From positions 1 to 22,804 of the IMG/VR virus record IMGVR_UViG_3300042691_044433: 22,804 bases of DNA; one strand, 5' to 3'. Positions 852 through 21,155 of the stretch are shown in pieces. Made by a program: the position numbers and the translations under genes. The notes beneath the pieces are model-generated. The model was given only the letters and a program-made list of their open reading frames with translations. It was not told where the DNA came from and searched no databases. Each line of letters begins with the position of its first letter. The first letter of the stretch is position 1. Source of the stretch: a virus.

Positions 852-1590
852 ATGCCTGCTCCAAGCTGCGGGTGCTGATGAATTCCCAGCCCCCGTGAGG
901 GAAGCCCCCCGACACACCCTTAAGTAGTGTAACCCCGGAGGTCCACATGGACTGGGCTGGCCCAGCATACCCTTCTTTTTGGGTGGGGTCAAGGTAGCAC
1001 CCGGCCACCAGCCCCATCATCTTGTGTTTGCCCTTGCGCACCGCCACGTCCCAGATGTGAGAGTGGCCCATGATGCAAGAGCGGTACTGCTTCTTGAGGA
1101 GGGTGGCGGCGGGGTACTCCCCACCCACGCTCTTCCCCATGACCCCCGTCACGAAGTAGTGGGAGGCTGCCATCCCCTTCACCTCGTACTCCTCAAGGAA
1201 GGGAACTACCTCCCACCCCTGCAGGAAGAGGTTGGCAGTACTAAGGGTACCCTGCAGCTCGGGGACGTTGTCCAGCGCCCTGTCAATGCGGGCCTCGTGG
1301 TTCCCCATGAGGAAGACCTTCTTGCCCTTCCACTCCCCCAAGGTGCGCAGCGCCACGTTGGCAGCCTCGATGTCGGCGGCTACCGTGCGGCCATCGAAGG
1401 AGGCCTTGCGCTTCCCGCTCCCCGTGAGGCTGCTCCCATCGTAGCTGCTGAGGGAGGGCATGTCCGCCAGATCCCCAAGACAGAGGAGCATGTCGGGGGT
1501 GGTGTCCTGCAGGTACTTGAGGAGCCAGCGGAAGCGGCGGGGGTTGACCCCGGGGCGGGCATGGGAGTCCGGCAGGACCAGTATGTTCAC
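844..1590 (-). CDS. Calcineurin-like metallophosphoesterase (248 aa)
   Basis: All the metal-binding blocks of the calcineurin-like phosphoesterase superfamily are present in order: D8-x-H10 (LPDSHAR), GD at 39-40 (LGDLAD), GNHE at 96-99, His144 (ASHYF) and GHSH at 175-178. Such enzymes use two metal ions to hydrolyse phosphomono- or diesters. The version with 'DMPSLSSYD' after the GD motif and the SHYF block is frequent in phages; its substrate is not known to me. The start is GTG at 1590, giving a GTGA overlap with the fusion gene upstream and placing LPDSH directly after a first beta strand. The open frame reaches 1683, but that extension overlaps the fusion gene and has no family sequence. 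It ends the glycan-type cassette, so a phosphorylated sugar, lipid or nucleotide substrate is possible but unproven. Confidence 0.9.
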   Translation of the reverse strand: MNILVLPDSHARPGVNPRRFRWLLKYLQDTTPDMLLCLGDLADMPSLSSYDGSSLTGSGKRKASFDGRTVAADIEAANVALRTLGEWKGKKVFLMGNHEARIDRALDNVPELQGTLSTANLFLQGWEVVPFLEEYEVKGMAASHYFVTGVMGKSVGGEYPAATLLKKQYRSCIMGHSHIWDVAVRKGKHKMMGLVAGCYLDPTQKEGYAGPAQSMWTSGVTLLKGVSGGFPHGGWEFISTRSLEQAYG

Positions 1591-3755
1591 TTGAAGACCT
1601 CCTTGAGGCTGGGCAGATCCTGCTTCTTGTCCCCCAAGATGAGCTTCCAGATGGTGGGTCCCACGCCCTCCCCGTGGCACCACACCCTGATACCCATCTG
1701 ACGGGCATTCTCGAAGAAGTACTGGGCGTCCTGCGAGGCCGCAATGAGTTCCCCGGTACTCCAGAACTTCTTGTCGGTCTGCCCGATGGTGATGTGCATG
1801 TACTTGGGGCGGCCCTGCTCATCCTTGGCCGTCTTGTCGATCTGCCCCTCGGGGTAGCAGAAGTCGAAGCCGAAGAGGTGGAACTCGCTGTACCCCAAGG
1901 ACTGGGCAAGGGAGAGGGCCCTCCACGCAGCACACGTCCCCCCGTTGATGAGGAGGCTGCCCTCCGGGAAGACCTCGCTCTTGATGAGGGCCTGCGTCAT
2001 TGCATGCCAGCCCCACACGTTCTTGGTCTTCGACATCACGTGCTTGGTGACAGAAGGATCCGACATGGAGGCCACCAGCACCTTCGTGCTAGGGGGGATG
2101 TCCTCAAGGAGGTCGGTGCGCTTGATGCCGTGGGTGGAGATCCCATCCACCGCCCGGGGATCCAGCAGGACGAGGTACTCGGGATCCACGCCCCACCCCA
2201 CCACCGTGGGGAGCGAGTGCTTCACCACCGCGATGTCGGCACCCTCGCGCCACATCTTGACGATCTTGTCCTTGCGCTTGTGGATGTCGGGGCCCGCCGA
2301 CACGATGAGGAGCTTCCTGTCGTGGGGCTTCGCCTTGGTGATCCACCTCTTCAGCAGGCCAAGGTTCTCCTTGACGTTGTTGATGATGTGGTCCTTGGGC
2401 ATGCAGTCTTGGGCCGTAACCTTGAGAGGCATGGCGCCCATACCCGCCGGGGGAAGGTCCGGGAGACCCTCACCCACCGCAGCGATGTTGACGATGCCGC
2501 CGCCCTGCACCGCGTCCTTCGACTTGTACACCTTCTTTTCGCGGAGAATGGTGGTGAAGGTGACTTCCACTCCACGGAACTCTGCGGCGGGAATCCCCCC
2601 GGCGTTGTCGGGGGTGTAATAGTCGTCGAAGACCACCACGGGAATGCGCTTGCACATCTCCCAGTCGTGTGCGATGGTCTCCACCGAGTGGCCCCCATCA
2701 AGCCACGCGAAGTCCACGCCGGGCACCTCCCGCAGCGTATCCTTGGTGTCACCCTTGGTGAGGTAGAAGTCGAAGTGCTTGCCCTTCTCCTTCATCGCGA
2801 GGCCGAAAGCGTGGAGCTTTGCCGTCACCTCCTCCAAGGAGAAGTGCTTCTTGACGTTGTGCTCCTTGGCATCGGTGTCCGCTGAGGCTTCCTCGAAGAG
2901 GTCATACCCATGGTAGACAACGTGGTCCCATTTCCCAAACGCAACCTGCGCCATCTGGATGGCCCGATCACCATTCCATGTGCCGGTTTCGAGGATGGTG
3001 CGTGGCATGTAGTGCTGGACGAGAGCCAGCAACTGGTCGTATCGGGTCTTCAACCCGTTGATCACCTTGTTCTTCCGGGCGCCCTTGAGGTGGGTGAAGA
3101 CCTCCTTGAGGGGGCTATTCTCAAAAGCGTCGAGCCCCACGTAGTTGGGGTCCACGAGGTTGACGGCTTCCAGCCCATGCAGCTTGTGCATCTGGAGGAC
3201 GCGCTCGAAGATGAAGGCGTCGGTCCACTCGCTGTAATTGAAGATCTCCCCGCTCATGTACAGGTCGTACATGTCGGCGATGACGGTGCGCCCCTCGTTA
3301 CCGGCGAAGTAGATGAAGCCGGTCTCGCTATAGTTGATGCCCTTGCGCCCGAGGTGGGTGACGTGGCCCTTGCACATCTCGCTGAGCCAAGCGATGGTGA
3401 GGGGCTTGGTGGTGATGACGTCGCCGTCGAGCCAGAGGAAAGGCTCTGGATCCTTGGCGGCATCATGGAGAGCGAAGACCTTTGCGCAGAATTTGAGGGC
3501 GTCGAGTCGGTAGTTGTATCCCTCGGGGGTCTCCCCATTCTTATCCGGGTGCTGGGTGCGGAAGGCGGTGAATCCTTCCACTTCCTCAAGACGTTTCACG
3601 GTGACAGCGCGATGCCCGCACGTGATCTCCGAGGGGTCCATCCCATCCACGTAGATGGTGAGTGAGATGTTGGAGTCCCAGAGGCGGGTTGACTCAAGGA
3701 AATTCTTGCCGTAAAGGTCCCAGCCCTTCGGCCCCCAAGAAGTGACGATCTTCAT
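1587..3755 (-). CDS. Glycosyltransferase / SAM methyltransferase / DUF115 three-domain fusion (722 aa)
   Basis: Three modules can be read. Residues about 1-225 look like a nucleotide-sugar glycosyltransferase with a DxD motif (WLDGD, D110 and D112) and the acceptor-side block 'NYSETGFIYF'. Residues about 235-400 are a class I methyltransferase of the Methyltransf_24 type: motif I E256-TGTWNG, then FAWLDGGHSVET (D353, H356) and FDDYY (377-380). Residues about 475-640 are a DUF115/MptE-like Rossmann domain: LLIVSAGPD (482-490), GGTCAAWRALSLAQSLG (605-621) and HLFGFD (626-631). DUF115 also occurs in Maf-type flagellin glycosylation proteins. Together they suggest building and methylating a glycan, perhaps on virion proteins or the host surface. 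The ATG at 3755 overlaps the stop of the preceding glycosyltransferase (ATGA), and the stop overlaps the phosphoesterase start. No frameshift is seen; the domains form one continuous frame. Confidence 0.85.
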   Translation of the reverse strand: MKIVTSWGPKGWDLYGKNFLESTRLWDSNISLTIYVDGMDPSEITCGHRAVTVKRLEEVEGFTAFRTQHPDKNGETPEGYNYRLDALKFCAKVFALHDAAKDPEPFLWLDGDVITTKPLTIAWLSEMCKGHVTHLGRKGINYSETGFIYFAGNEGRTVIADMYDLYMSGEIFNYSEWTDAFIFERVLQMHKLHGLEAVNLVDPNYVGLDAFENSPLKEVFTHLKGARKNKVINGLKTRYDQLLALVQHYMPRTILETGTWNGDRAIQMAQVAFGKWDHVVYHGYDLFEEASADTDAKEHNVKKHFSLEEVTAKLHAFGLAMKEKGKHFDFYLTKGDTKDTLREVPGVDFAWLDGGHSVETIAHDWEMCKRIPVVVFDDYYTPDNAGGIPAAEFRGVEVTFTTILREKKVYKSKDAVQGGGIVNIAAVGEGLPDLPPAGMGAMPLKVTAQDCMPKDHIINNVKENLGLLKRWITKAKPHDRKLLIVSAGPDIHKRKDKIVKMWREGADIAVVKHSLPTVVGWGVDPEYLVLLDPRAVDGISTHGIKRTDLLEDIPPSTKVLVASMSDPSVTKHVMSKTKNVWGWHAMTQALIKSEVFPEGSLLINGGTCAAWRALSLAQSLGYSEFHLFGFDFCYPEGQIDKTAKDEQGRPKYMHITIGQTDKKFWSTGELIAASQDAQYFFENARQMGIRVWCHGEGVGPTIWKLILGDKKQDLPSLKEVFK

Positions 3756-4513
3756 CGGTAGAGGTCCACCACATGTTTCCAGTTGAAGTACTCATGTTCC
3801 ACCAGCGCCTTCTCCGCATTCCAAGCGGCGGCGTAGGGGACGTCCTTGTAGTTGGGGAACCACGGTCCCCCGTCAGTGAAGTGCACGGCCTTCGGGCTCT
3901 CGTAAGAGTAGCGCGTGGTGGGACTGTGATATGGAAGCCAGTTCCACGTCTCGTCGATTTCCCCTATGGAGTCCGTCCACTCGAAACCGTGCAGCCACGA
4001 CCCCTTCTGTGTGTTGACTGCTTCGAGGTCCAGCTTCCGGCAGTGGGGGTGCATCGGATTCAGAACCATGAGGGAGGACCACAGTTTGCGATGGTACTGT
4101 GTCTGAGCCACCCCATCCATCTTGATGGATTCTTTGGGAGCAAACTTGTGCTTCACCACCGAGACTGCCACATCGGGGTCACAGAATTGGAGCATCTTCT
4201 TGATGTCGTCGAAGAAGATGAAGTCGCAATCCACGAAGACCACAAGGTCCTCGATGCCGTGCCTCTGGGCGATGTGGGGTACGAGGAAGCGCGAAAAGGA
4301 GAACTCCGTAGAGAACGGGCGCCCGTCCCCCACGTCGATCATCTGGTTGCCTTCCCGATAAGATGTGCGCCAATACTTCCCTGCAGCCTTCAGAGAATCC
4401 AGCTTGAGGGGGGTGACGACACAGGGGACGCTACAATGCCGCTTGACGCTATGCGCGGCTACCTTGTAGGCGATGTCCTCCCTAGAGTCATAGCCAATGA
4501 AGATGTGCAGCAT
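3752..4513 (-). CDS. Glycosyltransferase, GT8-like (253 aa)
   Basis: The protein starts MLHIFIGYDSREDIAYKVAA, the usual opening of phage and bacterial GT8-like transferases, and carries a DxD motif in VVFVDCDFIFFDD (D95, D97) that would bind the metal and nucleotide-sugar. A later TDSIGEIDETWNWLPY stretch followed by AVHFTDGGPW resembles the C-terminal HF-G-KPW region of GT8-type enzymes. No signal peptide or membrane segment is visible, so it should act in the cytoplasm. An in-frame TAA lies three codons upstream of the ATG at 4513, which fixes the start. No Shine-Dalgarno precedes it; instead a promoter-like sequence ends right at the ATG. It is the first gene of the cassette and overlaps the next gene by ATGA. 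Donor and acceptor sugars cannot be told from sequence. Confidence 0.85.
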   Translation of the reverse strand: MLHIFIGYDSREDIAYKVAAHSVKRHCSVPCVVTPLKLDSLKAAGKYWRTSYREGNQMIDVGDGRPFSTEFSFSRFLVPHIAQRHGIEDLVVFVDCDFIFFDDIKKMLQFCDPDVAVSVVKHKFAPKESIKMDGVAQTQYHRKLWSSLMVLNPMHPHCRKLDLEAVNTQKGSWLHGFEWTDSIGEIDETWNWLPYHSPTTRYSYESPKAVHFTDGGPWFPNYKDVPYAAAWNAEKALVEHEYFNWKHVVDLYR

Positions 4514-10510: not shown

Positions 10511-11962
10511 TTACCGAGAAGGCCTTGGGGGAGGGGGACGAGTAGGCTCGCTCTCAATTCCACCCAGACTCCGAAACTCTTGCCTCAAGTCCACCCATTC
10601 GGGGTTTCTCTGGTAGTCTATATCGTTTCTCTGGATGTCGGCCATGCGCCTGCGAATACTCTCCATCCGAGCCCGGACGTCAGCAGCCGCTGCAGCATCA
10701 CCACGAGCCTGCGCACCAGTGGCGGCAACATCCCTGCGAGCATCTGCCGTGAGGTAGGCTCCGGTAGTGCGCTGCACGGCGGACTGCATGCGACGGATGC
10801 TCTCCAGCTCAGCTCGCTGCTCGGGGGTCCGCTGCTCCTCGGGGATACGCTCAAGCGGCTGCGCCTGAGTCTCAAGCCGCTGCACAATAGCAAAGACCTC
10901 TTGAGGGGGAATCTGTTGTCTCTGCACCGCCACCTTGAATTCCAGTTCGGCGCGGCGGATGGCATTCTCGGAACCCCGGAGGGATACCTCCAAGCGCTTG
11001 AGGGCTTCGTCGCTGACGCCCTTCTCGACGTCAAAGCGGGCCTTCTGGTACTGGAGGTCGCGGGTCTTGGCAGCCTCGCCAACGTCGAGGAGCTTGGAGG
11101 TGATGTCACGCTGCGCACCGAAGCGGCGGTAGGCTTCCTCGCGGGCCTCCTTCGCCTCCTCGCGCTTGCTGAGGCGCTCCTTCTCCTTCTCGGTCATGTA
11201 CTTCTCGGTGCCCTCTGCCACGGGCCCAGCGATGGCGGAGATGGCACTCTGGCCCAGCTTGGGCTCTGCCGCGAGAATACGGAGACCCGTCTGCAGCATC
11301 GTCATGTAGGGGTCGGCCTTGTAGGTTTCCTGCGCCTCGCGCTCCCCGGGCATCCCCGCGCTGAGCTTGCGCCGCGCCTCCTCCTCGTTGAGGTCTGCGG
11401 GGCGCGTAGGCATCGTGAACTTCGTGGGACCCGGGATTCCACCCATGCCAGCGCCACCACCAAGATACTGGCGCACCGCCGCATAGGGATCTGCGGGAGC
11501 TGCAGGAGGTGCCGTAGGGATGGCCCTCACGCCCTCTCCGACCTGCGGAGGCCCAGCCATCGTGGCCTCTTCGGCCTGCTGCGACGCCAGCATCTCGGGG
11601 GTGAGGCGGGGAGGACGCGCTCCCGTGGAGCGGAAGATATCGACCTCGGTGGGGGGCGCCGGAGGCTCGATGGGAATCATGCGCCGAAGCATCCGGTCCG
11701 CATAAACGGCGGCTACGGGGTCAGGCGGCGGGCGCGGCGTCGGCGGAGGCTCGGCACGCGGAAGAATGGGAGAGGCACCCCTCGGGAGATCGTAGGGGGC
11801 GCGCGTGACATCAATCATGGCCTCCCGAAGATCCACATCGAAGGTCTGGGGATCGTAGCCCATCCTGATGACGACGTCGGGCGGAAGCTGCCCACTACGC
11901 TGAAGCGCCGCCAACTCCCGCAGCTCGTTGTAAGGAAGCTGCTTCAGTGGATTTTCAGCCAT
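10511..11962 (-). CDS. Coiled-coil virion protein (483 aa), function unknown
   Basis: Residues 1-70 are polar. A Pro-rich linker follows (LPRAEPPPTPRPPPDP, about 70-85), then a flexible region rich in Pro, Ala and Gly to about residue 180. From about 230 the protein is highly charged and helical (EKERLSKREEAKEAREEAYR and similar), typical of long coiled coils, and it ends in another Pro/Arg tail. A short hydrophobic stretch, 'SAISAIAGPVAEG', lies before the coiled coil. I recognise no enzyme domain. Its place between the lytic transglycosylase and the giant ejection proteins suggests a structural or internal virion role. The start at ATG 11962 overlaps the previous gene by eight bases (ATGGCTGA); a TTG at 11974 in the same frame is less likely. 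Confidence 0.7.
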   Translation of the reverse strand: MAENPLKQLPYNELRELAALQRSGQLPPDVVIRMGYDPQTFDVDLREAMIDVTRAPYDLPRGASPILPRAEPPPTPRPPPDPVAAVYADRMLRRMIPIEPPAPPTEVDIFRSTGARPPRLTPEMLASQQAEEATMAGPPQVGEGVRAIPTAPPAAPADPYAAVRQYLGGGAGMGGIPGPTKFTMPTRPADLNEEEARRKLSAGMPGEREAQETYKADPYMTMLQTGLRILAAEPKLGQSAISAIAGPVAEGTEKYMTEKEKERLSKREEAKEAREEAYRRFGAQRDITSKLLDVGEAAKTRDLQYQKARFDVEKGVSDEALKRLEVSLRGSENAIRRAELEFKVAVQRQQIPPQEVFAIVQRLETQAQPLERIPEEQRTPEQRAELESIRRMQSAVQRTTGAYLTADARRDVAATGAQARGDAAAAADVRARMESIRRRMADIQRNDIDYQRNPEWVDLRQEFRSLGGIESEPTRPPPPRPSR

Positions 11963-12636: not shown

Positions 12637-13593
12637 TCAACGGCCAAATCCGGGCAGTCCAAGAGCCGTTGGAGACATGGCCGAAGCCCATGCGGCAGGA
12701 GATGCGGTGGGTGCACCGTAGCCCATGAGGTTGTAGATGGAGGCGCCAGTAAGGCCAAGACCAGCAACAGTCTGCAGGGGAGACTGCTGCGGGACCAGAG
12801 TCTGGCCCTGCGTCGTGGTGGTGGCGCCGGGCTGTGCTCCACGGAGGAGGGCCCCGAGCTGACCCAGTTGCTGCATGCCGTAGCCTTGGCCACGCATGTA
12901 TTCTTGGAAGGCGAGGTCACGTTGCTGCTGCTCCAACTGGCGTGGGAGAGCCTGCGACTTCATGATGGCGTCGAGACCCCCGAGACCCAACTGCTGGGCC
13001 TGTGCCCCCATGGAAGCAAACATCGGGGCGGCCTGCAACTGCCTTTGGGCCTCTGCCTGCTGGAGGGCGGTACCTGCAGTGAAGGCCCGCTCGGCCCCCG
13101 TCTGCTGGATGTCGGCGAGGCGCTGGCCCAGATTGCGCTCGGCCTCGGCCTCTTGGACGCCATAGCGGGCCCCGCCGAAGGCACCCTGACGAGAAGCCCC
13201 GAAGGCCATCTGCGGGCGCATCTTCTCGTAGTCGCGCACCGCCTCGCGCTTGGCGATGTCGGTGACGTACTGCGTGTAGGGATTCATGTAGGAGGAGTAG
13301 TCGATGTCCCCCACCCCACGGGAGCCCATGGCGGCGCTCTGGTAGCCAGCAGCGAGGCCGGGCATGTAGGCACCGGCAGCCATGGGGACTTGCCCGATGG
13401 TGGCCTCTTCGGTGGCACTCAGGGGGGCGATGCGCTCCCGGGGATCGTAGTATTCGTAGGGGCGCTGGGCGACTTCCTCCTGCCCGGCCTCAACGAGATT
13501 CTTGAGGGCTTCCTCGTACCACGCGGGGAAAGCGGAGGACTGCACCGTGGTGGTGGGTACAGCCTTGGCTTTGGAGGTGCAAAGTGAACCCAT
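12637..13593 (-). CDS. Conserved phage virion protein, MNPYTQ type (318 aa)
   Basis: The sequence begins with a short polar stretch, then SAFPAWYEEALKNLVEAGQE and PYEYYDPRERIAPLS. It continues with YMNPYTQYVTDIAKREAVRD, FGASRQGAFGGARYGVQEAE and long Gln/Ala/Leu helices. This pattern (PAWY, RIAPL, MNPYTxxVxDIAKREA, GAFGGxR) recurs in unannotated structural proteins of environmental podovirus-like phages, usually near the transglycosylase, as here. It ends in a Gly/Ala-rich tail (about 265-318). There is no catalytic motif; it is probably an internal or tail-associated virion component. The ATG at 13593 shares one base with the stop of the GNAT gene (TGATG), and the next gene starts one base after its own stop. 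Confidence 0.72.
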   Translation of the reverse strand: MGSLCTSKAKAVPTTTVQSSAFPAWYEEALKNLVEAGQEEVAQRPYEYYDPRERIAPLSATEEATIGQVPMAAGAYMPGLAAGYQSAAMGSRGVGDIDYSSYMNPYTQYVTDIAKREAVRDYEKMRPQMAFGASRQGAFGGARYGVQEAEAERNLGQRLADIQQTGAERAFTAGTALQQAEAQRQLQAAPMFASMGAQAQQLGLGGLDAIMKSQALPRQLEQQQRDLAFQEYMRGQGYGMQQLGQLGALLRGAQPGATTTTQGQTLVPQQSPLQTVAGLGLTGASIYNLMGYGAPTASPAAWASAMSPTALGLPGFGR

Positions 13594-14030
13594 CAGAAAC
13601 CCCTGCTGTAGACGCCGCCCACTCGGGCAAATCCGTGGCGCTCGTAGAAATTGTCCTTGCGCACGACGTCCTCCCCATGCACCACTGCCATAAGGAGGGG
13701 AAGGCCCCGCATTGTAGCATATTCGGCGGCGGCGCGCAACAGGTGGGAGGCCACCCTAGAGGTGCGGGCACCGGCATCCACGTAGAAGACGAGGTCCCCT
13801 ATGAACTTGCCGTGGCTGTACCAGTGCTCCACCTCTTGGAGGGCGAGGACTCCCACCAGCCTGTCCCCCTTGTGGGCCACGAAGATGCGGCCCTCCGCGA
13901 GGCAATCATGCAGGGCCCCCTCCACCTTGTGGGGGGCTACGGGCGGCAACTGCATGGGGGAGGTGCGGTGCATCTGCATGAGGAGGGCCCCGATGGCGGG
14001 AATGTCCCCTTCCTTAGCGGCGACGATCAT
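13593..14030 (-). CDS. GNAT-family N-acetyltransferase (145 aa)
   Basis: This is a compact GNAT fold: MIVAAKEGDIPAIGALLMQM opens the first strand and helix, then RIFVAHKGDRLVGVLAL (strands 2-4). YVDAGARTSRVASHLLRAAA (84-103) stands in the acetyl-CoA pyrophosphate-binding loop; it keeps the R-x-x-R-x-A form seen in phage GNATs rather than the classic Q/RxxGxG/A. FYERHGFARVGGVYSR (128-143) is the typical C-terminal motif. It would move an acetyl group from acetyl-CoA to an amine; the substrate is unknown. The start at ATG 14030 lies inside the end of the 783-aa gene (17-base overlap). The frame remains open upstream over that gene, but the residues there are not GNAT-like. Its place inside the virion block suggests it may act on a structural protein. 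Confidence 0.82.
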   Translation of the reverse strand: MIVAAKEGDIPAIGALLMQMHRTSPMQLPPVAPHKVEGALHDCLAEGRIFVAHKGDRLVGVLALQEVEHWYSHGKFIGDLVFYVDAGARTSRVASHLLRAAAEYATMRGLPLLMAVVHGEDVVRKDNFYERHGFARVGGVYSRGF

Positions 14031-16365
14031 AGATGCGCACCAGATCCCCAACGCTGTAGTTCTTGGGCGGCTGCTTCTCGTGCCCGTATGCCTTCTTGCG
14101 GATGGCCTTGCGCAACCCGTCGAGCTTGCGGGCCCCCGCCGCGTTGTTGCCATCCCCCAATGCAGCCACCGTGGCCGCATCGAAGACGAACTCACCGGAG
14201 GAGAGGCGGGCAGGCTGCTTCCCATCGATGATGGCGGGCACGTCGTCGTCCATGCCGCCGCTCTTGCCGGGGACGTAGCCGCCCTCGGCATAGGTGAAGG
14301 GGTTGCCGGGACGCCGCACGCCCAGAGACCCGTAGATGTCGCTGGGACTGCGGGGCTGCACCTTGGAGGAGATGTAGGAGGGCGCAAGGGTGGGAGCCAC
14401 CTCGGCCACCGTAGGCTCTTGCGGGGCCATGGTGGGCACGCCGATGTCGCGGGAGTCGCCGCCCGTGGAGTAGCTGGTGGTGCTGGGCGCAGACATGGAT
14501 GCCACCCCCGGGGCAGAAGGAGTCCCGATGCCGAGGGCTTCACCCACGCCGCGCCCCACAGCCGTAGCCATGGAGCCAACAGTGGGACCGCCCAGCACGT
14601 TGGAGAGTGCGTTGATGGGACCGAAGGGCGTGAAGGAGGTGGCCACGTTGAGGGCGGTGGAGATGGGATTCTCGATGGCATTCATGGCGCGCTCGTAGGC
14701 AAAACCCAGCGCCCTATCCATGAGGCTGCGCTCGGGCACCGGAGCCATGGCCCCCTCAAGGTAGCCCGAATCGACATCTTCGCCAACCGAGGGATCGCCG
14801 CCAATGCCGGGGCCCACCCCGTCGTAACCCCCATCGCGTTCGGAGGCGTCGCCAAATCCGCCATCGACCATGCCGCCCTCGTCGTAGCGCATCGCGCCGC
14901 GAAGGCCAAAGGGGTTGACGGAGCCGCCATCGGCATAGCCCCGCTGCACTGCTTCAAGTCCGCGCATCACTTCCCCACCTTTCTTGAACCCCATGGCAAG
15001 CTGATTCTCGTGAGAGGCAACTTTCCCGCCCTTGGCGTATCGTCCGAGAAGGTGCTCCCAGCGGTCTCCAGTAGTAATATCCACAGGGTCATACATGGCC
15101 CTGCGACCCGCTTTATACATTTCTAAGTACGCCTTGGGAATTCCAGAAACGACTGTGGACAACTCATCTTCGGGGACAGCCCGCAAAGATTCAGTCATCC
15201 GAGCTTCCATCTCTCCGGGGTTAGTTCGATACTTTGCGACTTTCTTTTTCCAGACATCATCGTAGGCCTTGGCCTTCGTCAGCAGATGTTGGATCTGATC
15301 AGACGTAAGTGTTGATAGAGGGTATTGACCGACAAGATAATCTAAAAATTCGGCCTTGTCTTTTTTTGACGGTGTCCTAAAATACGTATCAAAAAGAGTT
15401 TGAATTCCACTCCTGCTGTCATTCGGAATGAGCTTATCCAAAGCATCAGAGTATTCAGCTTTTGCCAAGTCAAATTTAGGGGGCGCGGAACCCGAAAAAC
15501 TAGCTCCCCGAACCCAATTTTCATCCCGTTGAATTGCATGCTGAATCTCATGCAACAAAGTATCCCGTAGATCTTTTGGGGTACTAATTCCTACGTTAAT
15601 TGTTCTCGGGTCTCCAAACTCTCGTGAAACATATGAGCCCGAAAGTTCAGCAGAAGGTCTTGGTTGAACCTTGATGTACTCAAAATGAGGATAAGCTTCG
15701 AACAATTCTGGATGCTCAATAGCATCCTTCAAATAATTATGACGTAGCGTAGTTCCTTCATACGGATAGATTATAGGGGAGTCTGGTGTAGCTGTTGACT
15801 TGATGAGATTTTGCAGCCCTTCCTCGGAAAGAAAAGCGGACTCCTTGATGCGCATCGGTGCGTCAGAAATCAGGAAGCGGGGAATCACGTCTTCTGGCTC
15901 GCCACTCTGAGTCAACTTTCGGGCCCGGCTTTGCCCCACAATGGCAGACGGACTGAGGGAAATTTTTTCTGGAAGATATGCCAGAAGTTCGGCGTCGCTG
16001 ACGTCGGGAGCCGGGGTGTTGCGCATCTGGCGATACGCGGCTTGGGCTTCCGGCAGTTGGGCCCGAGGACCCACGAACATCCCGAGGGAGCCTCGGGGGA
16101 CCCGACCTGAGGAGAGGGCGATGCCTCCGCCGCCCACTGCACCCGTGGCGTCGATGATGTCCTTATAGGTGACTTCCTCCGGGGGGAGGTCTCCCTTGAA
16201 GGCGGCCCCGATCTTGAGGGCGGCGCGCAGGGGTTCCGCGATGATGGCAGGGACGGCAAACTCCGCCTCCCCCGTATCCTTGCGGGTGCGGAAGGGCAGG
16301 ATGGTGGCGCGGTCGTAACCCTCATCCTCGAAGGGGAGGCGCAGAGGATTGGGCTTGTCGCTCAT
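14014..16365 (-). CDS. Virion protein with embedded HExxH metallopeptidase-like (LPD23-type) domain (783 aa)
   Basis: Residues 1-110 are GC-rich-coded and end at GMFVGPRAQL. Residues about 160-435 form a separate domain with INVGISTPKDLRDTLLHEIQ, giving HExxH at 272-276, and a downstream PGEMEAR block (383-389) that could supply the third zinc ligand, E385. This matches the metallopeptidase-like LPD23 domain of large polyvalent phage proteins. Residues 440-540 are Gly-rich with repeated KGG/EGG/DGG motifs. The C-terminal part (about 690-760) has GGYVPGKSGGMDDDVPAIID, then LSSGEFVFDAATVAALGDGN, a signature common in podovirus-like virion proteins. Codons in the metallopeptidase part are far more AT-rich than the rest. 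ATG 16365 overlaps the previous stop (ATGA). Whether the peptidase is active, and whether the protein is packaged, is inferred. Confidence 0.78.
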   Translation of the reverse strand: MSDKPNPLRLPFEDEGYDRATILPFRTRKDTGEAEFAVPAIIAEPLRAALKIGAAFKGDLPPEEVTYKDIIDATGAVGGGGIALSSGRVPRGSLGMFVGPRAQLPEAQAAYRQMRNTPAPDVSDAELLAYLPEKISLSPSAIVGQSRARKLTQSGEPEDVIPRFLISDAPMRIKESAFLSEEGLQNLIKSTATPDSPIIYPYEGTTLRHNYLKDAIEHPELFEAYPHFEYIKVQPRPSAELSGSYVSREFGDPRTINVGISTPKDLRDTLLHEIQHAIQRDENWVRGASFSGSAPPKFDLAKAEYSDALDKLIPNDSRSGIQTLFDTYFRTPSKKDKAEFLDYLVGQYPLSTLTSDQIQHLLTKAKAYDDVWKKKVAKYRTNPGEMEARMTESLRAVPEDELSTVVSGIPKAYLEMYKAGRRAMYDPVDITTGDRWEHLLGRYAKGGKVASHENQLAMGFKKGGEVMRGLEAVQRGYADGGSVNPFGLRGAMRYDEGGMVDGGFGDASERDGGYDGVGPGIGGDPSVGEDVDSGYLEGAMAPVPERSLMDRALGFAYERAMNAIENPISTALNVATSFTPFGPINALSNVLGGPTVGSMATAVGRGVGEALGIGTPSAPGVASMSAPSTTSYSTGGDSRDIGVPTMAPQEPTVAEVAPTLAPSYISSKVQPRSPSDIYGSLGVRRPGNPFTYAEGGYVPGKSGGMDDDVPAIIDGKQPARLSSGEFVFDAATVAALGDGNNAAGARKLDGLRKAIRKKAYGHEKQPPKNYSVGDLVRIYDRRR
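15060..15880. other. Low-GC island inside the 783-aa virion gene
   Basis: Hand counts of 60-base rows give 40% GC at 15301, 37% at 15361, 38% at 15541, 38% at 15661 and 48% at 15781, against 70% at 14521. The drop coincides with codons for residues about 160-435, the metallopeptidase-like domain, and the reading frame is uninterrupted at both ends. This is what a domain-sized recombination from a donor of different composition would leave. Confidence 0.8.
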
Positions 16366-16625
16366 GTCTGGTCCACCTTTACGAGACCCTTGTCCTGCAG
16401 GTCGCTGAGGAGCTTCACCAATGTGTTGGCCACCGCAGTGACAGTTATGTTACCGAGGTCGATGGTGGCGCTGGTGGGTATTGTACCAGAAACTGCGTAG
16501 CCTGTCACTGCGGGGCCCGTCACCACCTGCCCGTGGTAGAGGTTGAGGACGCGCACCAACTCGCCCCATGAGCGCTGGGCATCCGGGAGGAGGGATGCGG
16601 GGGGAAGAGGAAGCAGGGGCTTCAT
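16362..16625 (-). CDS. Small phage protein, probably tail- or fibre-associated (87 aa)
   Basis: The protein begins MKPLLPLPPASLLPDAQRSW and then GELVRVLNLYHGQ, followed by a beta-rich middle with TSATIDLGNITVTAVAN, and a C-terminal helix ending LVKLLSDLQDKGLVKVDQT. Phage proteins with a similar 'R-W-x-x-E-L-x-R-x-L-x-L-Y' start and a 'LL-DL-x-x-GLV' end often lie beside tail genes, but I know no function. The start is ATG 16625, which forms an ATGA overlap with the hub/nozzle gene. Its stop forms ATGA with the 783-aa gene, so both ends are coupled. The in-frame extension to 16673 would overlap the upstream gene and carries no family-like sequence. Confidence 0.65.
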   Translation of the reverse strand: MKPLLPLPPASLLPDAQRSWGELVRVLNLYHGQVVTGPAVTGYAVSGTIPTSATIDLGNITVTAVANTLVKLLSDLQDKGLVKVDQT

Positions 16626-18475
16626 CGCTGGCCGTCCGGCGCGACACGGAAGCGCAAGGCACCGAGGCGCCAAGAAGTGTTGACCCCGTCGCCGTCAATG
16701 CGGTAATATGCTTGACGGCCACGTATGCGCAGATCGATCTTCTGCGTGTGGGCCGACACGGTGAAGGGACCCTTCGTCACCTCCTGAGAGGCGGGAGTGT
16801 TGGGATACTTGAGGGTGTGGAGGGTAATCTCCACGTTGCCCGGCATCGCATCTCCATTCCTGTCGGAGAAGTCGGGAACGATGCGATCCAAGAAGATGAG
16901 TTCCTGACCCGCATCAAGGTCAAAGAGATTGCTCTCGATGTAGGAAGGAAGTGCCTGCCCGTCGTCATCGTTGCCATATTCGTGGTAGTACAATTTGGTA
17001 GCCGAAGAGGCCACGCCCGCCGCGATGGGGTAGGTGGCAATCCCTTGGTCGATCCACGCCGTGCGCACCATGCTGCCGATGCTCCACGTATTCTCCATGT
17101 AATTGAAGATGACGTAGCGGTCTACTTCCCCGGAGGTGGTGGGGTAGAACCAGATGACCTCGTTGTAGGAGGTGTTGCTCCCACACACGATCTTGTCCAA
17201 CTGGGTGCGATCAAGGGCCTCGAAGACGTAGCGCAGCACGTTGCACTTGAGGGGCTGGGCGGCTGCGCCATCATACACCATGAAGCGCTCATCGGCCATC
17301 CAGAAGGTACGGCCACCCACCTCCACCATGGCGTTCTGCCCCAAGGTGCCGCAGTTGGTGCCAATAAGCTGGAAGCCGAAGGTGTAGGGCGGGCCCACCT
17401 GCTGCATGCTGTAGAGGTTCTCGTCGGTCCATATCAGGATCTGGCCACGGGTACGGCGCGCCGCCACGATCTTGGAGGCACCCGAGAGGACCTTGTCGCC
17501 CGCCGTGTTGGTGGCGGAGGCCGTCCAATCGTTGATGTTCTCTTGGCTGCACCACCGGATGTAGAGGGGGTTCACCACCGACGTGAGGGCGTCGGGGCAC
17601 CCGAAGGTGATGAGATGGCGATCTTCGGGGCTGACGAGGATCTGCGTATTCTGGGAGGGCGTGGCGGTAACCTGATAGGCCCTCTTGGCGGTACCTTGGG
17701 AGGAATCCCAATAGTAGATGCCGTTGTTGCGGGGGCACGCAACGAGGTCCTCGCCCCAATTGTCCATGCTCCAGTAGCGCAAGGGGGCCACGAAGGCGGA
17801 GGAGGCAGGAGTGCCCCAGCCTTGGCCCCCGCTCCACACACCGGCGCCCCACCCGAAATTGGGCGCATTGCTGGCGAAGCCGGAGGGGTGGAGGAAGAAG
17901 CCGGTTGCGAGACCCCCGCCCGAGGCAGAGGTGGCTGCGGCGGTGACCCCGGTGTCGATGGTGAAGGAGTTGGCGTCCACCACCGCGATCTCGAAGCCCC
18001 CAAGGGGAGCCGACACGGGGTAGACGTTGCCCCCAACGGTGGTTGCCACGGAGGTGAAATAGAAGTAGTCGCCCGAGCTGTGACCGTGGGCCGACACGGA
18101 GACCGTGATAAGGGTGGAGCCCGCCGAAGTGCTGATGATGTTGGAGGCCGACACGGAGGTATCGACGGGGGTGATGTCGTAGTACTTGCCCCCGTCCCAC
18201 ACCATGAGGTGGGAGTTGGTGCCCACCGCCAAATAGGTGGTGCCCGCGAGGTTGACCCACGTGAAGAGGCTGCGGCCCACGCCGGGAACTTCTACGGTGT
18301 CGCCCACCCCGTTGATGTTTTGCCAGCCGCCGATCTTCTCGGGCTTGCCGCTACGGAAGCGCACCTTGTCGCCATCGTACCAGCCGCCCTCACCCGCATA
18401 GCGGGTCAACTCCCGGTTGATTCCGGCAGAAGCAGGTACCAGAAGGAGACGGGGACTCTGGATGCCGTCAGCCAC
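16622..18475 (-). CDS. Tail hub/nozzle-like structural protein (617 aa)
   Basis: A large, beta-rich protein starting with RLLLVPASAGINRELTRYAG and EGGWYDGDKVRFRSGKPEKI followed by GGW. This N-terminal signature is common in environmental podovirus-like phages at the position taken by T7 gp12 (nozzle) or the P22 gp10 hub. The rest has many short strands with Trp and Tyr (LMVWDGGKYYDITP, YIRWCSQENINDWT, ILIWTDENLYSMQQVGPPYT), as expected for a beta-propeller-like tail protein. There are no enzyme motifs. Start: GTG 18475, overlapping the holin-like gene by eight bases (GTGGCTGA). It is the first long gene of the virion block and is followed without gaps by the small and ejection-type genes. Exact equivalence to gp12 or gp10 is inferred from position and fold character. 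Confidence 0.72.
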   Translation of the reverse strand: MADGIQSPRLLLVPASAGINRELTRYAGEGGWYDGDKVRFRSGKPEKIGGWQNINGVGDTVEVPGVGRSLFTWVNLAGTTYLAVGTNSHLMVWDGGKYYDITPVDTSVSASNIISTSAGSTLITVSVSAHGHSSGDYFYFTSVATTVGGNVYPVSAPLGGFEIAVVDANSFTIDTGVTAAATSASGGGLATGFFLHPSGFASNAPNFGWGAGVWSGGQGWGTPASSAFVAPLRYWSMDNWGEDLVACPRNNGIYYWDSSQGTAKRAYQVTATPSQNTQILVSPEDRHLITFGCPDALTSVVNPLYIRWCSQENINDWTASATNTAGDKVLSGASKIVAARRTRGQILIWTDENLYSMQQVGPPYTFGFQLIGTNCGTLGQNAMVEVGGRTFWMADERFMVYDGAAAQPLKCNVLRYVFEALDRTQLDKIVCGSNTSYNEVIWFYPTTSGEVDRYVIFNYMENTWSIGSMVRTAWIDQGIATYPIAAGVASSATKLYYHEYGNDDDGQALPSYIESNLFDLDAGQELIFLDRIVPDFSDRNGDAMPGNVEITLHTLKYPNTPASQEVTKGPFTVSAHTQKIDLRIRGRQAYYRIDGDGVNTSWRLGALRFRVAPDGQR

Positions 18476-18641: not shown

Positions 18642-19107
18642 GGACGGATACCCACAGGAGGATGCCGAGGAGGAAGCCCACGCAGCACTCCGCCCTCTCG
18701 GTCCACTTGCCCCCGAGGGGTTTGTTGACCGCATAGGCCACCATGAAGAGGATGCCGCCGAGGGCATTGAGGAGGACCCACGGGTTGTGCCACGCGAGGG
18801 GCGCGAGGGAGATTGCCGCCACTGCCACCCCCCAGAGGGCAAGGTAGAAGTGGTCCCTTCCCTTCTCCGTGAGGCCCATGGACTTGTCGAAGTAGGGGAG
18901 GGTCATCGCCGCAAAGACGAAGGGCCACAGCACCGCCAGCTTCCACTGGAGGTAAGCGAGGGGAGCCACGATGAGGGCGCTTGTGACGATACGAGTGATG
19001 CCCGTGCCCACATGGATGCCCACCATGCTGGTAAGCTGATTGAGCGCACCGCCGCGCAGCCGCCAGCAAAACGCGCACCATGCCGCATACAGGAGCCAAC
19101 CGATCAT
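18634..19107 (-). CDS. Multi-pass membrane protein (157 aa), function unknown
   Basis: Strongly hydrophobic throughout, with likely membrane segments at about 1-15, 40-55, 57-72, 88-106, 110-128 and 140-155. Short charged loops separate them, including FCWRLRGGALNQL (13-25) and DKSMGLTEKGRDHF (74-87). The W-R-L-R-G-G block near the N-terminus resembles unannotated phage and bacterial membrane proteins, but no function can be assigned. The neighbouring holin-like gene allows a lysis, antiholin or superinfection-exclusion role; this is speculation. The start ATG 19107 overlaps the fibre gene stop (ATGA). The in-frame extension to 19173 lies inside the fibre gene and is polar, unlike the rest. 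Confidence 0.7.
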   Translation of the reverse strand: MIGWLLYAAWCAFCWRLRGGALNQLTSMVGIHVGTGITRIVTSALIVAPLAYLQWKLAVLWPFVFAAMTLPYFDKSMGLTEKGRDHFYLALWGVAVAAISLAPLAWHNPWVLLNALGGILFMVAYAVNKPLGGKWTERAECCVGFLLGILLWVSVHG

Positions 19108-20714
19108 GGGTTCACCTGCGCGTTGTTGGGCTTCTTCGACTGCACGAACCGCTTGCCAGCAGTCGCCGTCCAAGTGTTGGAGCCGCTAGCGTTGTAGCTG
19201 GAGCTCGACGAGCGCAGCTTGAACCCGCCAGCGGTCTTGTCCGCATGGGTGCCGAAGGTCACGGCGTTTCCGTTGATCGTCAGCGTCGCGGGGTTGCCGT
19301 CCGTCCACACGAATGGCCCATCGGCCGCTGCGTTGCCGGTGAAGGTTCCGCTGGTGGAGACTGCGGTGCTGGTGATGTTGGCGGTCGAGAGGGCCTTGAA
19401 GCCGCTGGGCGGGGTGTATGCGAATGGGCGTTGACCGAAATTGAAATCAGCAACGCCGCCGCTCTCAGCAGAAGCAGCAAAACGATACGGGCCGGTCAGC
19501 CCGGTGAACGCGGCATTCGTGCCAGCTACAGGATCGCCGCTGTTTTGAACGGTGCCGTTCTTGCTGAAATATAGCTTGCCGTTGTCGGCATCGATTATGA
19601 TCCCGATGACATCGCTGGCGACATAGCTGTTCCCATATGAGGTATAGGAGGCTGAATTAACCTTCTGTCCGCTGTAGTAATACGCATAGGTATAGGTGTC
19701 TTGCCCCAGATACCTGTTGGCCGCTGGGTTTGTCGTTCCGGTAATTATGCCGGGGACGAACTCCGCGATATCAGCGCCCATCGTCACTTCGCAGTACCAC
19801 TTTCCAGACGCCATTTGGATTGTGTTGTAGGCTTGCGCATTGCCACCAGTAGCCTTCGTGAAATTCAAATTGGCAGACGCATAGGTTCCAGTCGTGCCGC
19901 TCAAATCAAGCGGATTAAGCGTCGAATAGTTGTTCGTCGGCGTGTCGGTCATCTGGTCGAACGTTACGCCGCTCGTCACCGAAATGCCGCTGGTCGTGAA
20001 GTTGTTGCTGTTGCCAGAGGTGTCGTAGCCGATGGTCGTCGTGCTGGCGGCGTCCTTGAACTGAAGGAAGAAGCCGTTGGTGCCATAGGTGCCGCTGTAC
20101 GCCTTCGGCACCCACACGCCTGTGATGGCGTCGGTCTGGCCGAAGCTAGAAGGCGTCAGGGCTTGGCCGTCTATCATGTAGAAGTTGGCGATGTATCCGT
20201 CGAGATAGGTTCCGTTAACGGTGTCCGACATGATGCGATACGCGGTCGATGCGGCATTTAGGTAGGTATTGGAATTCTGCGTCGGATACGAGCCAGAGAC
20301 ATACGTCATGGCTACGCCATTCCAGTACACCTTCACTCTGTCGGCTGCCGTTGCTTGCGTCGTGTCGACGGCAATGACGAGATGACCCCAAGCCGATGGA
20401 TCTCTGAACAGGCCAGCGAAATTGATGTCATTTGTTGCGTCGTTGCGAACGAAGATCCGACCGGCGCCGCTCGCCAAGTTCCAGCCGATGATTCCGTTGT
20501 TGGCGCTTGAACTGACGATGCCAACCTGAGTGCCTGAAAACAGCGAAGGCGCGGCCTTCATCCACGTCGAATAGGTGACCTTCTTCTGATCGGTCGGGGA
20601 CGCGCCGCTGGTCCGCGACAGGTACGCGCTGTTGCTCGCGCGGAAGCGCAGCGAGTTGGCGATCTGGTAGCCAGCGCCGCTGCCGGCCAGCAAAACTTGG
20701 TGGATTGCGGACAT
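19104..20714 (-). CDS. Tail fibre / receptor-binding protein with LamG-like and SPRY-like domains (536 aa)
   Basis: Residues about 20-190 look like a concanavalin/LamG beta-sandwich (SLRFRASNSAYLSRT, VTYSTWMKAAPSLFSG, WGHLVIAVDTTQ, YLDGYIANFYMIDGQAL). A typical linker TFDQMTDTPTNNYSTLNPLD (251-270) leads into a SPRY-like sandwich at about 300-430 (SGKWYCEV, IGIIIDADNGKLYFSKNG, FNFGQRPFAYTPPSGFKAL). The C-terminus is Ser/Thr/Ala-rich and beta-prone. This order is common in fibre proteins of environmental phages and points to glycan or protein binding on the host surface. Three sampled rows (19801, 19861, 20161) give about 47-52% GC, clearly below the neighbours, which suggests recent acquisition. 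ATG 20714 shares one base with the previous stop (TAATG). No chaperone or peptidase domain is seen. Confidence 0.85.
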   Translation of the reverse strand: MSAIHQVLLAGSGAGYQIANSLRFRASNSAYLSRTSGASPTDQKKVTYSTWMKAAPSLFSGTQVGIVSSSANNGIIGWNLASGAGRIFVRNDATNDINFAGLFRDPSAWGHLVIAVDTTQATAADRVKVYWNGVAMTYVSGSYPTQNSNTYLNAASTAYRIMSDTVNGTYLDGYIANFYMIDGQALTPSSFGQTDAITGVWVPKAYSGTYGTNGFFLQFKDAASTTTIGYDTSGNSNNFTTSGISVTSGVTFDQMTDTPTNNYSTLNPLDLSGTTGTYASANLNFTKATGGNAQAYNTIQMASGKWYCEVTMGADIAEFVPGIITGTTNPAANRYLGQDTYTYAYYYSGQKVNSASYTSYGNSYVASDVIGIIIDADNGKLYFSKNGTVQNSGDPVAGTNAAFTGLTGPYRFAASAESGGVADFNFGQRPFAYTPPSGFKALSTANITSTAVSTSGTFTGNAAADGPFVWTDGNPATLTINGNAVTFGTHADKTAGGFKLRSSSSSYNASGSNTWTATAGKRFVQSKKPNNAQVNP

Positions 20715-21155
20715 TACGAGACTCCGATGCCCGAGATGACCCACTCGGTGTTGGCGATCTTGACGATGGTGGCAATCCCGGCGGCGGCCAACTGCCTGCC
20801 ACCCACCCCCGCATCGAAGGCATTGTAGAGGGTATCGACGCAGGAGATGTCGATGGGCCCCGCCGATGCATGATTGATGAAGGTGATGGCGGTGCCGATG
20901 GCGAAGGCCACCGACGTGTTGCCGGGGATGGTGTAGGTGGCGGTGGAAGTGGCGGAGGCCGGATGGAAGATCTGCTTGCCCGCATCGGCAGAGACGAGGG
21001 AGTAGACGCTGGCCTGCACATTCTGGATGACGCGGGAGATGGCGGCCTTGGCGCCCTCCGGGGTCACGGCTTGGTCGGCGGCAATACCCTCAAGGGTAGC
21101 GGAGGTATCCGCGAGGCGCACGAGACCAGCCGAGGTGTTGGTGGCGCTAGCAATC
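20714..21155 (-). repeat. Fibre C-terminal module, copy A
   Basis: This tract codes for the last roughly 145 residues of the second fibre (from SATNTSAGLVRLADTSATLE to VISGIGVS). It pairs block by block with the end of the truncated fibre at the right edge: SAGLVRLAD, AVTPE, SRV-QNVQA, LVSAD-G, HP-SAT, LAA---ATI-K and ISG-GV are shared. The encoding DNA also keeps short exact matches, for example around the CTGCACATTCT tract, so duplication is more likely than convergence. Confidence 0.75.

What the first reader, a model, noticed from the sequence alone, without database searches (positions are those of the whole stretch)
15060..15880. Metallopeptidase-like domain inserted in a virion gene as a low-GC island
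Within one uninterrupted reading frame GC falls from about 70% to 37-40% and returns. The low-GC part corresponds to the domain carrying HExxH. Such sharp, domain-sized composition change points to recent recombination that swapped or inserted a functional module into a packaged protein.
Basis: seen in the sequence. Interest (0 to 1): 0.75.

Follow-up and report, generated by a model that had tools for sequence, protein, structure and literature searches.

The report
Swapped enzyme module in phage protein
Two nearly identical uncultured phages carry different enzyme domains, a predicted metal-dependent protease in one and a predicted ADP-ribosyltransferase in the other, in the same segment of one gene among their particle genes, so the domain-sized dip in GC marks a real exchange of the enzyme part.

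Summary
Within one open 783-codon gene (14014-16365, minus strand) third-position GC drops from 0.81 to 0.44 and recovers; no shuffle comes close. The main interpretation, a module swap, is supported directly. Sister contig L002 (86-96% DNA identity in the aligned pieces) has the same gene with the same ends, but between window 16041 and 14991 it carries an unrelated domain: ART-PolyVal (PF18760, E 3e-17), an ADP-ribosyltransferase, instead of the HExxH domain. Other variants at the same locus have no recognisable enzyme; many start at what is now internal Met467, so a leader plus enzyme was probably added to an older protein. Two caveats. A small synonymous AT bias in this HExxH domain is general (43 of 51 phage ORFs, mean -0.05), so part of the dip is intrinsic, but the window's (-0.35) lies 5.6 SD beyond. 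And the tree does not reject joint inheritance of leader and HExxH domain, so which enzyme came first is open. The domain belongs with the zincin-like metallopeptidases of phage polyvalent proteins (Iyer et al. 2017); peptidase activity, packaging and injection are inferred. A clear example of a known kind.

The parts
14014..16365 (-). 783-aa gene with the island: N-terminal leader + HExxH domain + lineage-specific backbone with conserved C-terminus
   Evidence: open frame; homology by parts
16054..16323 (-). leader (residues 15-104), high GC; found in front of HExxH domains in other phages and in front of the ART in L002
14992..16040 (-). exchanged segment: no DNA homology to the sister contig, which has 512 other bases here; weak similarity resumes at about 15042
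15070..15990 (-). AT-rich island (maximum-likelihood GC boundaries)
15181..15732 (-). zincin-like metallopeptidase core (residues 212-395)
   Evidence: alignments A1, A2, A4; models
15538..15552 (-). HEIQH, residues 272-276: predicted zinc ligands H272 and H276, catalytic E273
   Evidence: H, E, Q, H invariant in 46 sequences
15199..15216 (-). GEMEAR, residues 384-389; E385 predicted third zinc ligand
   Evidence: matching E and R invariant in 25-row alignment A4
14836..15039 (-). four 17-residue repeats [YF]x[KDE]GGxV (residues 443-510) at the right-hand junction
14965..14967 (-). Met467, aligned with the start codon of enzyme-less homologues (MKGIESVMRGYADGG...), probable former start of the gene
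14017..14292 (-). conserved C-terminal tag (residues 692-783), 81-94% identical in the variants aligned; weakly like the C-terminus of tape-measure proteins
16622..18475 (-). upstream neighbour: virion structural protein (phrog_3287), used as synteny anchor
16362..16559 (-). small conserved gene (65 aa) between the anchor and the swapped gene
13593..14030 (-). downstream GNAT acetyltransferase gene, overlapping the end of the 783-aa gene
12637..13593 (-). DNA ejection protein (phrog_4287)

Best explanation
The island is an exchangeable enzyme module in a small phage effector-like protein encoded among the particle genes. Shown: this phage lineage has at one locus a protein with a constant C-terminal tag; the other members read carry no recognisable enzyme, while the window and its sister L002 have an N-terminal leader plus an enzyme domain, and the enzyme differs between them (HExxH zincin-like domain here, ART-PolyVal there), with sharp junctions. 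Inferred: recombination in the conserved leader on one side and in the backbone and Gly-Gly repeat region on the other replaced one enzyme by the other, and at least the AT-rich HExxH module came from a lower-GC phage not long ago. Inferred function: the protein is assembled into the particle by its constant part, enters the host with the DNA, and the zincin cuts itself or a host or defence protein early in infection, as proposed for polyvalent proteins. Confidence below is for the exchange; for virion delivery and peptidase action it is about 0.5.
For: Composition break beyond that of the same domain in other phages. L002: flanks at 80% (N) and 92% (C) aa identity and 86-95% DNA identity, unrelated middle, PF18760 at 64 bits against a cut-off of 31; left junction preceded by a 38-base exact match, right junction followed by near-identity. 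Enzyme-less variants at the same position after the same head gene (ten of them without any Pfam match), many of whose starts align with Met467. HExxH module recognised in 190 viral contigs and many bacterial genome loci, often in very large ORFs, with invariant HEIQH and downstream GE..AR; models give the zincin order of strands and helices, top structural neighbours IrrE/PprI. Gene neighbours are head and ejection proteins. Polyvalent-protein framework: PMC5512222.
Against: In all 24 leader-bearing proteins that are long enough, other than L002, the leader goes with an HExxH domain, so the zincin may be the original partner and the ART in L002 the newcomer. The tree does not show incongruence. 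Part of the dip is intrinsic to this domain. The N flank is much more diverged than the C flank (4-fold divergence 0.28 against 0.087), so several recombination events are mixed here. Fold matches to solved zincins are weak (Z 5.0 or less). No evidence of packaging or activity.
Confidence: 0.8

Rival explanations
1. Leader and zincin arrived together as one unit and fused to the backbone; the zincin is ancestral here, and the swap happened in the L002 line, where an ART replaced it. The AT-richness of the zincin is then an old or intrinsic trait rather than a mark of recent import. (A sub-case of the exchange: it differs in direction.)
For: The leader occurs only with HExxH domains except in L002; AU test compatible with joint inheritance (p 0.885); zincin cores are AT-biased in most relatives; the ART in L002 is also AT-biased (residual -0.16) whereas ARTs in general are not, which fits an import into L002.
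Against: Leader GC3 is 0.82 and zincin GC3 0.38 in the same gene, a gap of 0.44 against at most 0.26 in 21 leader-bearing relatives; after a shared residence in a GC-rich genome both should have drifted alike.
Confidence: 0.35
2. Assembly artefact: the metagenome assembler joined two phages at the conserved leader and at the repeat region, producing a chimeric gene.
For: Single contig; junction zones are conserved; three other contigs (L101, L102, L104) end at the same point 103 bases into this gene, showing that assembly is difficult here.
Against: Frame is kept across both junctions and the conserved zincin residues are intact; L002 independently has a complete, different in-frame module at the same place; a leader-zincin order is found in unrelated phages.
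Confidence: 0.06
3. No transfer: local codon choice is low in GC because of selection at this domain (for example folding speed or low expression), and the difference from L002 is an old divergence.
For: Small synonymous AT bias in 43 of 51 relatives.
Against: Size of the window's dip (z -5.6) and replacement by an unrelated domain in a sister contig.
Confidence: 0.05

Closest known systems
Zincin-like metallopeptidase (MPTase) domains of phage polyvalent proteins, with LPD23 (PF18838); Iyer et al. 2017, PMC5512222
   Same: HExxH helix, later helix with conserved glutamate, three-stranded sheet, occurrence in proteins encoded near virion genes; leader-LPD23-zincin proteins of 340-570 aa are common in viral contigs.
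   Different: The window domain is diverged (18-26% identity), is not hit by any Pfam model, has no recognisable LPD23, and sits fused to a locus-specific backbone.
ART-PolyVal (PF18760), as in sister contig L002
   Same: Fills the same slot in the same gene in a sibling phage; widespread in large phage proteins.
   Different: Unrelated chemistry; strand-1 motif reads YTGTS rather than the histidine described for the HYD clade.
IrrE/PprI-type zincins (PDB 3dte, 8sln)
   Same: Top structural neighbours of the relative's model, 17-19% identity over about 100 residues.
   Different: Z only 5.0; no PDB sequence match to the window domain.
Phage T4 Alt (injected ADP-ribosyltransferase)
   Same: Model for how a packaged enzyme can act at the start of infection (from PMC5512222).
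   Different: Different ART clade, not fused to this backbone; only an analogy.

Membership tests
Zincin-like metallopeptidase | HExxH motif, invariant in the family | tested here: met
   H272, E273, Q275, H276 invariant across 46 sequences
Zincin-like metallopeptidase | third ligand glutamate in a later helix | tested here: met
   E of GE..AR invariant in 25 aligned relatives, E385 in the window; geometry not measured
Zincin-like metallopeptidase | core of a three-stranded sheet, HExxH helix, then glutamate helix | tested here: met
   secondary structure of the models: three strands, helix 154-172 with the motif, later helices; L050 model core pLDDT above 90
Zincin-like metallopeptidase | structural match to solved zincins | tested here: inconclusive
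   IrrE/PprI are the top rows but Z 5.0 or less; no Foldseek match at E 0.001
Zincin-like metallopeptidase | zinc binding and proteolysis | not testable with these tools
   needs protein
Phage polyvalent protein (Iyer et al. 2017) | encoded among virion genes | tested here: met
   neighbours are phrog_3287 head protein and phrog_4287 ejection protein
Phage polyvalent protein (Iyer et al. 2017) | two or more domains of disparate activity in one polypeptide | tested here: inconclusive
   one recognisable enzyme domain; leader and backbone have no known function
Phage polyvalent protein (Iyer et al. 2017) | delivered into the host with the DNA | not testable with these tools
   needs virion proteomics or an injection assay
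LPD23 (PF18838) | match to the Pfam model | tested here: not met
   no Pfam hit in the window protein at E 0.1; present in relatives between leader and zincin
ART-PolyVal (PF18760), for L002 only | score above Pfam cut-off | tested here: met
   64.1 bits against 31.2
ART-PolyVal (PF18760), for L002 only | H-Y-D active-site residues | tested here: inconclusive
   reads YTGTS at the strand-1 position by eye; no structure made
Tape-measure protein (considered for the C-terminal tag) | full-length homology to tape-measure families | tested here: not met
   only residues 688-743 match phrog_6090, at E 4e-4

The most novel reading that the evidence does not exclude
The locus is a dedicated payload slot: a constant, virion-directed backbone with Gly-Gly repeats and a C-terminal tag onto which related phages load alternative injected enzymes (none, metallopeptidase, ADP-ribosyltransferase) by recombination at the leader and repeats, and the slight AT bias of zincin cores across phages reflects constant traffic of these modules between genomes.
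Probability: 0.3. Interest if true: 0.7.

Novelty: new member of a known kind. Interest (0 to 1): 0.5.

Why it matters
Polyvalent proteins were described as built by domain accretion, from comparisons of distant proteins (PMC5512222). Here the exchange is visible between two sibling phages at base resolution, along with enzyme-less forms of the same gene and its probable former start codon. That gives a natural set of closely related variants for asking what each enzyme does, and a caution for using GC islands as evidence of transfer: this domain is mildly AT-biased almost everywhere.

Tried and rejected
Pfam, NCBIfam and PDB sequence searches with the window protein or domain gave nothing useful. 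The first fold search with the window model was dominated by a long helical insert; the only zincin listed was PprI at Z 4.7; BFVD matches are polyvalent-type phage proteins, so a relative was modelled instead. Tree of the domain: 146 columns, long branches; the first quick tree put the window near L093 and away from leader-bearing proteins, but this changed when long rows were removed and the AU test did not support it, so it is not used. Antisense gene in the island: no ORF of 100 aa or more lies on the plus strand between 15127 and 16567. Search for a donor: no relative of the window's whole zincin above about 40% identity in viral, phage, plasmid or genome collections (higher figures are for pieces of 20-30 residues around the motif), so the donor is unknown. 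Exact junction scan found no second contig. Literature searches for an earlier report of such a swap found only general polyvalent-protein papers in the library held.

Full report
WHAT WAS CLAIMED AND WHAT IS THERE. This is correct. The 783-aa gene (14014-16365, minus) has GC 0.68-0.71 on both sides and 0.39-0.44 in the middle in 150-base windows. Third-position GC is 0.81 outside and 0.44 inside residues 126-472, log-likelihood gain 59 against at most 8.8 in 20 shuffles, and the stretch is the lowest-GC 800 bases of the window. HEIQH is at residues 272-276.

HOW UNUSUAL IS THE DIP. They do, weakly. Among 83 loci with the same domain, GC of the domain minus GC of the flanks averages -0.037 (SD 0.045, lowest -0.157); the window has -0.20. 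Corrected for amino acids and measured against the rest of the same ORF, 43 of 51 non-redundant ORFs have a negative residual (mean -0.048, Wilcoxon p 5e-7), while ART domains show none (18 ORFs, p 0.25). The window's residual is -0.35, 5.6 SD from that mean; the ART of L002 has -0.16. So a mild AT bias belongs to this domain, and the window's island goes far beyond it.

THE SISTER CONTIG. L002 (IMG/VR 3300011113_000749) aligns with the window in pieces that sum to about 9.5 kb, at 86-96% DNA identity, in a mosaic of better and worse patches. Its copy of the gene has N-terminal residues 6-114 at 80% and 444-783 at 92% aa identity. Between window 16041 and 14991 there is no DNA homology: 1049 bases here, 512 there. 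The left junction follows a 38-base exact match; similarity after the right junction is near perfect from the GFKKGGEVMRG codons on. The L002 segment is PF18760 ART-PolyVal, 64 bits, E 3e-17. This is the direct evidence for an exchange of the enzyme domain.

THE LOCUS IN OTHER RELATIVES. With the upstream head protein as anchor, 71 contigs were fetched and the gene after it was read wherever present; a separate search with the conserved C-terminus added few new contigs. The closer relatives carry the same small gene, then a protein of very variable length (280 to about 850 aa) ending in the conserved tag of 79-92 residues. None but the window and L002 matches either enzyme domain, and ten diverse ones have no Pfam match at all. 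Many start MKGIESVMRGYADGGSVNPF or similar, which aligns with Met467 of the window (MRGLEAVQRGYADGGSVNPF). The simplest reading is that leader plus enzyme was added in front of an existing gene of this locus, its old start codon now lying inside the frame. Three contigs (L101, L102, L104) share the L002-type N-terminus but stop 103 bases into the gene, so their enzyme is unknown.

THE LEADER. Residues 15-104 define a leader found in 28 viral loci. Of these, 24 carry an HExxH-type motif after it, three are truncated, and one, L002 itself, carries the ART. In the relatives scanned with Pfam, LPD23 lies between leader and zincin. This shows that the leader is at home with the zincin, and argues that the window keeps the ancestral kind of enzyme, possibly as a replaced, AT-rich copy, and that L002 received the ART. 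The tree of the zincin core cannot decide: joint inheritance with the leader clade is not rejected (AU p 0.885). Direction is therefore left open.

WHAT THE DOMAIN IS. BLAST-level relatives are abundant in large phage proteins, in Pseudomonas phages such as AF and H66, and in bacterial genomes, where many may be prophages (not checked). H, E, Q, H of the motif are invariant in 46 sequences, and the later glutamate and arginine of GE..AR are invariant in a 25-row set. The window model (pLDDT 74) and the model of relative L050 (pLDDT 82, core above 90) show three strands, the HExxH helix and a later glutamate helix, the layout described for polyvalent-protein MPTases (PMC5512222). Structural matches to solved zincins are consistent (IrrE/PprI on top) but weak, Z 5.0. 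Membership in the zincin superfamily is therefore well supported by sequence and moderately by structure; peptidase activity is untested.

HOW IT MOST LIKELY WORKS. Shown: location between head and ejection genes, a constant C-terminal part across variants, an exchangeable enzyme in front of it. Inferred: the constant part places the protein in the particle, and the enzyme acts when it enters the host with the DNA, either trimming the protein itself or cutting a host protein. The ART in the sibling would serve an early-infection purpose by another chemistry. This follows the proposal of Iyer et al. and was not tested.

ALTERNATIVES. An assembly chimera cannot be fully excluded, as only this contig has the zincin version, but two in-frame joins with intact conserved residues, and an independent different module in L002, make it unlikely. 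Codon selection alone cannot explain an unrelated domain in the sister.

VERDICT. Observation confirmed; swap supported; recency and direction not settled; kind of protein already known, this instance new and unusually clear.

Noticed in passing
window 14836-15039: Four 17-residue repeats of [YF]x[KDE]GGxV (residues 443, 460, 477, 494), with a further copy at 692, start right at the right-hand junction; possible recombination or processing sites.
   Followed up: partly
51 phage ORFs among L018-L100: The zincin core is slightly but consistently AT-biased at synonymous sites within its own ORF (43 of 51); ART domains are not. No explanation.
   Followed up: partly
L002 6328-6810 and relatives L168, L169, L172, L173: This ART subfamily reads YTGTSKDK where HYD-type ARTs are described with a strand-1 histidine; the active site may differ.
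   Followed up: no
window 11555-11805 and 18804-21055: Further unalignable segments between the window and L002: part of the 487-aa ORF, and the genes between about 18.8 and 21.1 kb, so the genomes are mosaics with several exchanges.
   Followed up: no
L101, L102, L104 (ends): Three contigs from two samples all end 363 bases after the head gene, inside this gene, as if assembly breaks where variants branch.
   Followed up: partly
window 13593-14030: The GNAT acetyltransferase gene next to the swapped gene is not found in some relatives (L016, L103, L105, L117), another presence-absence trait of the locus.
   Followed up: partly
window 1587-4513: A 722-aa and a 253-aa ORF that look like glycosyltransferase and methyltransferase-type proteins, downstream of the large 968- and 970-aa virion ORFs; impression from reading the sequence only.
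   Followed up: no
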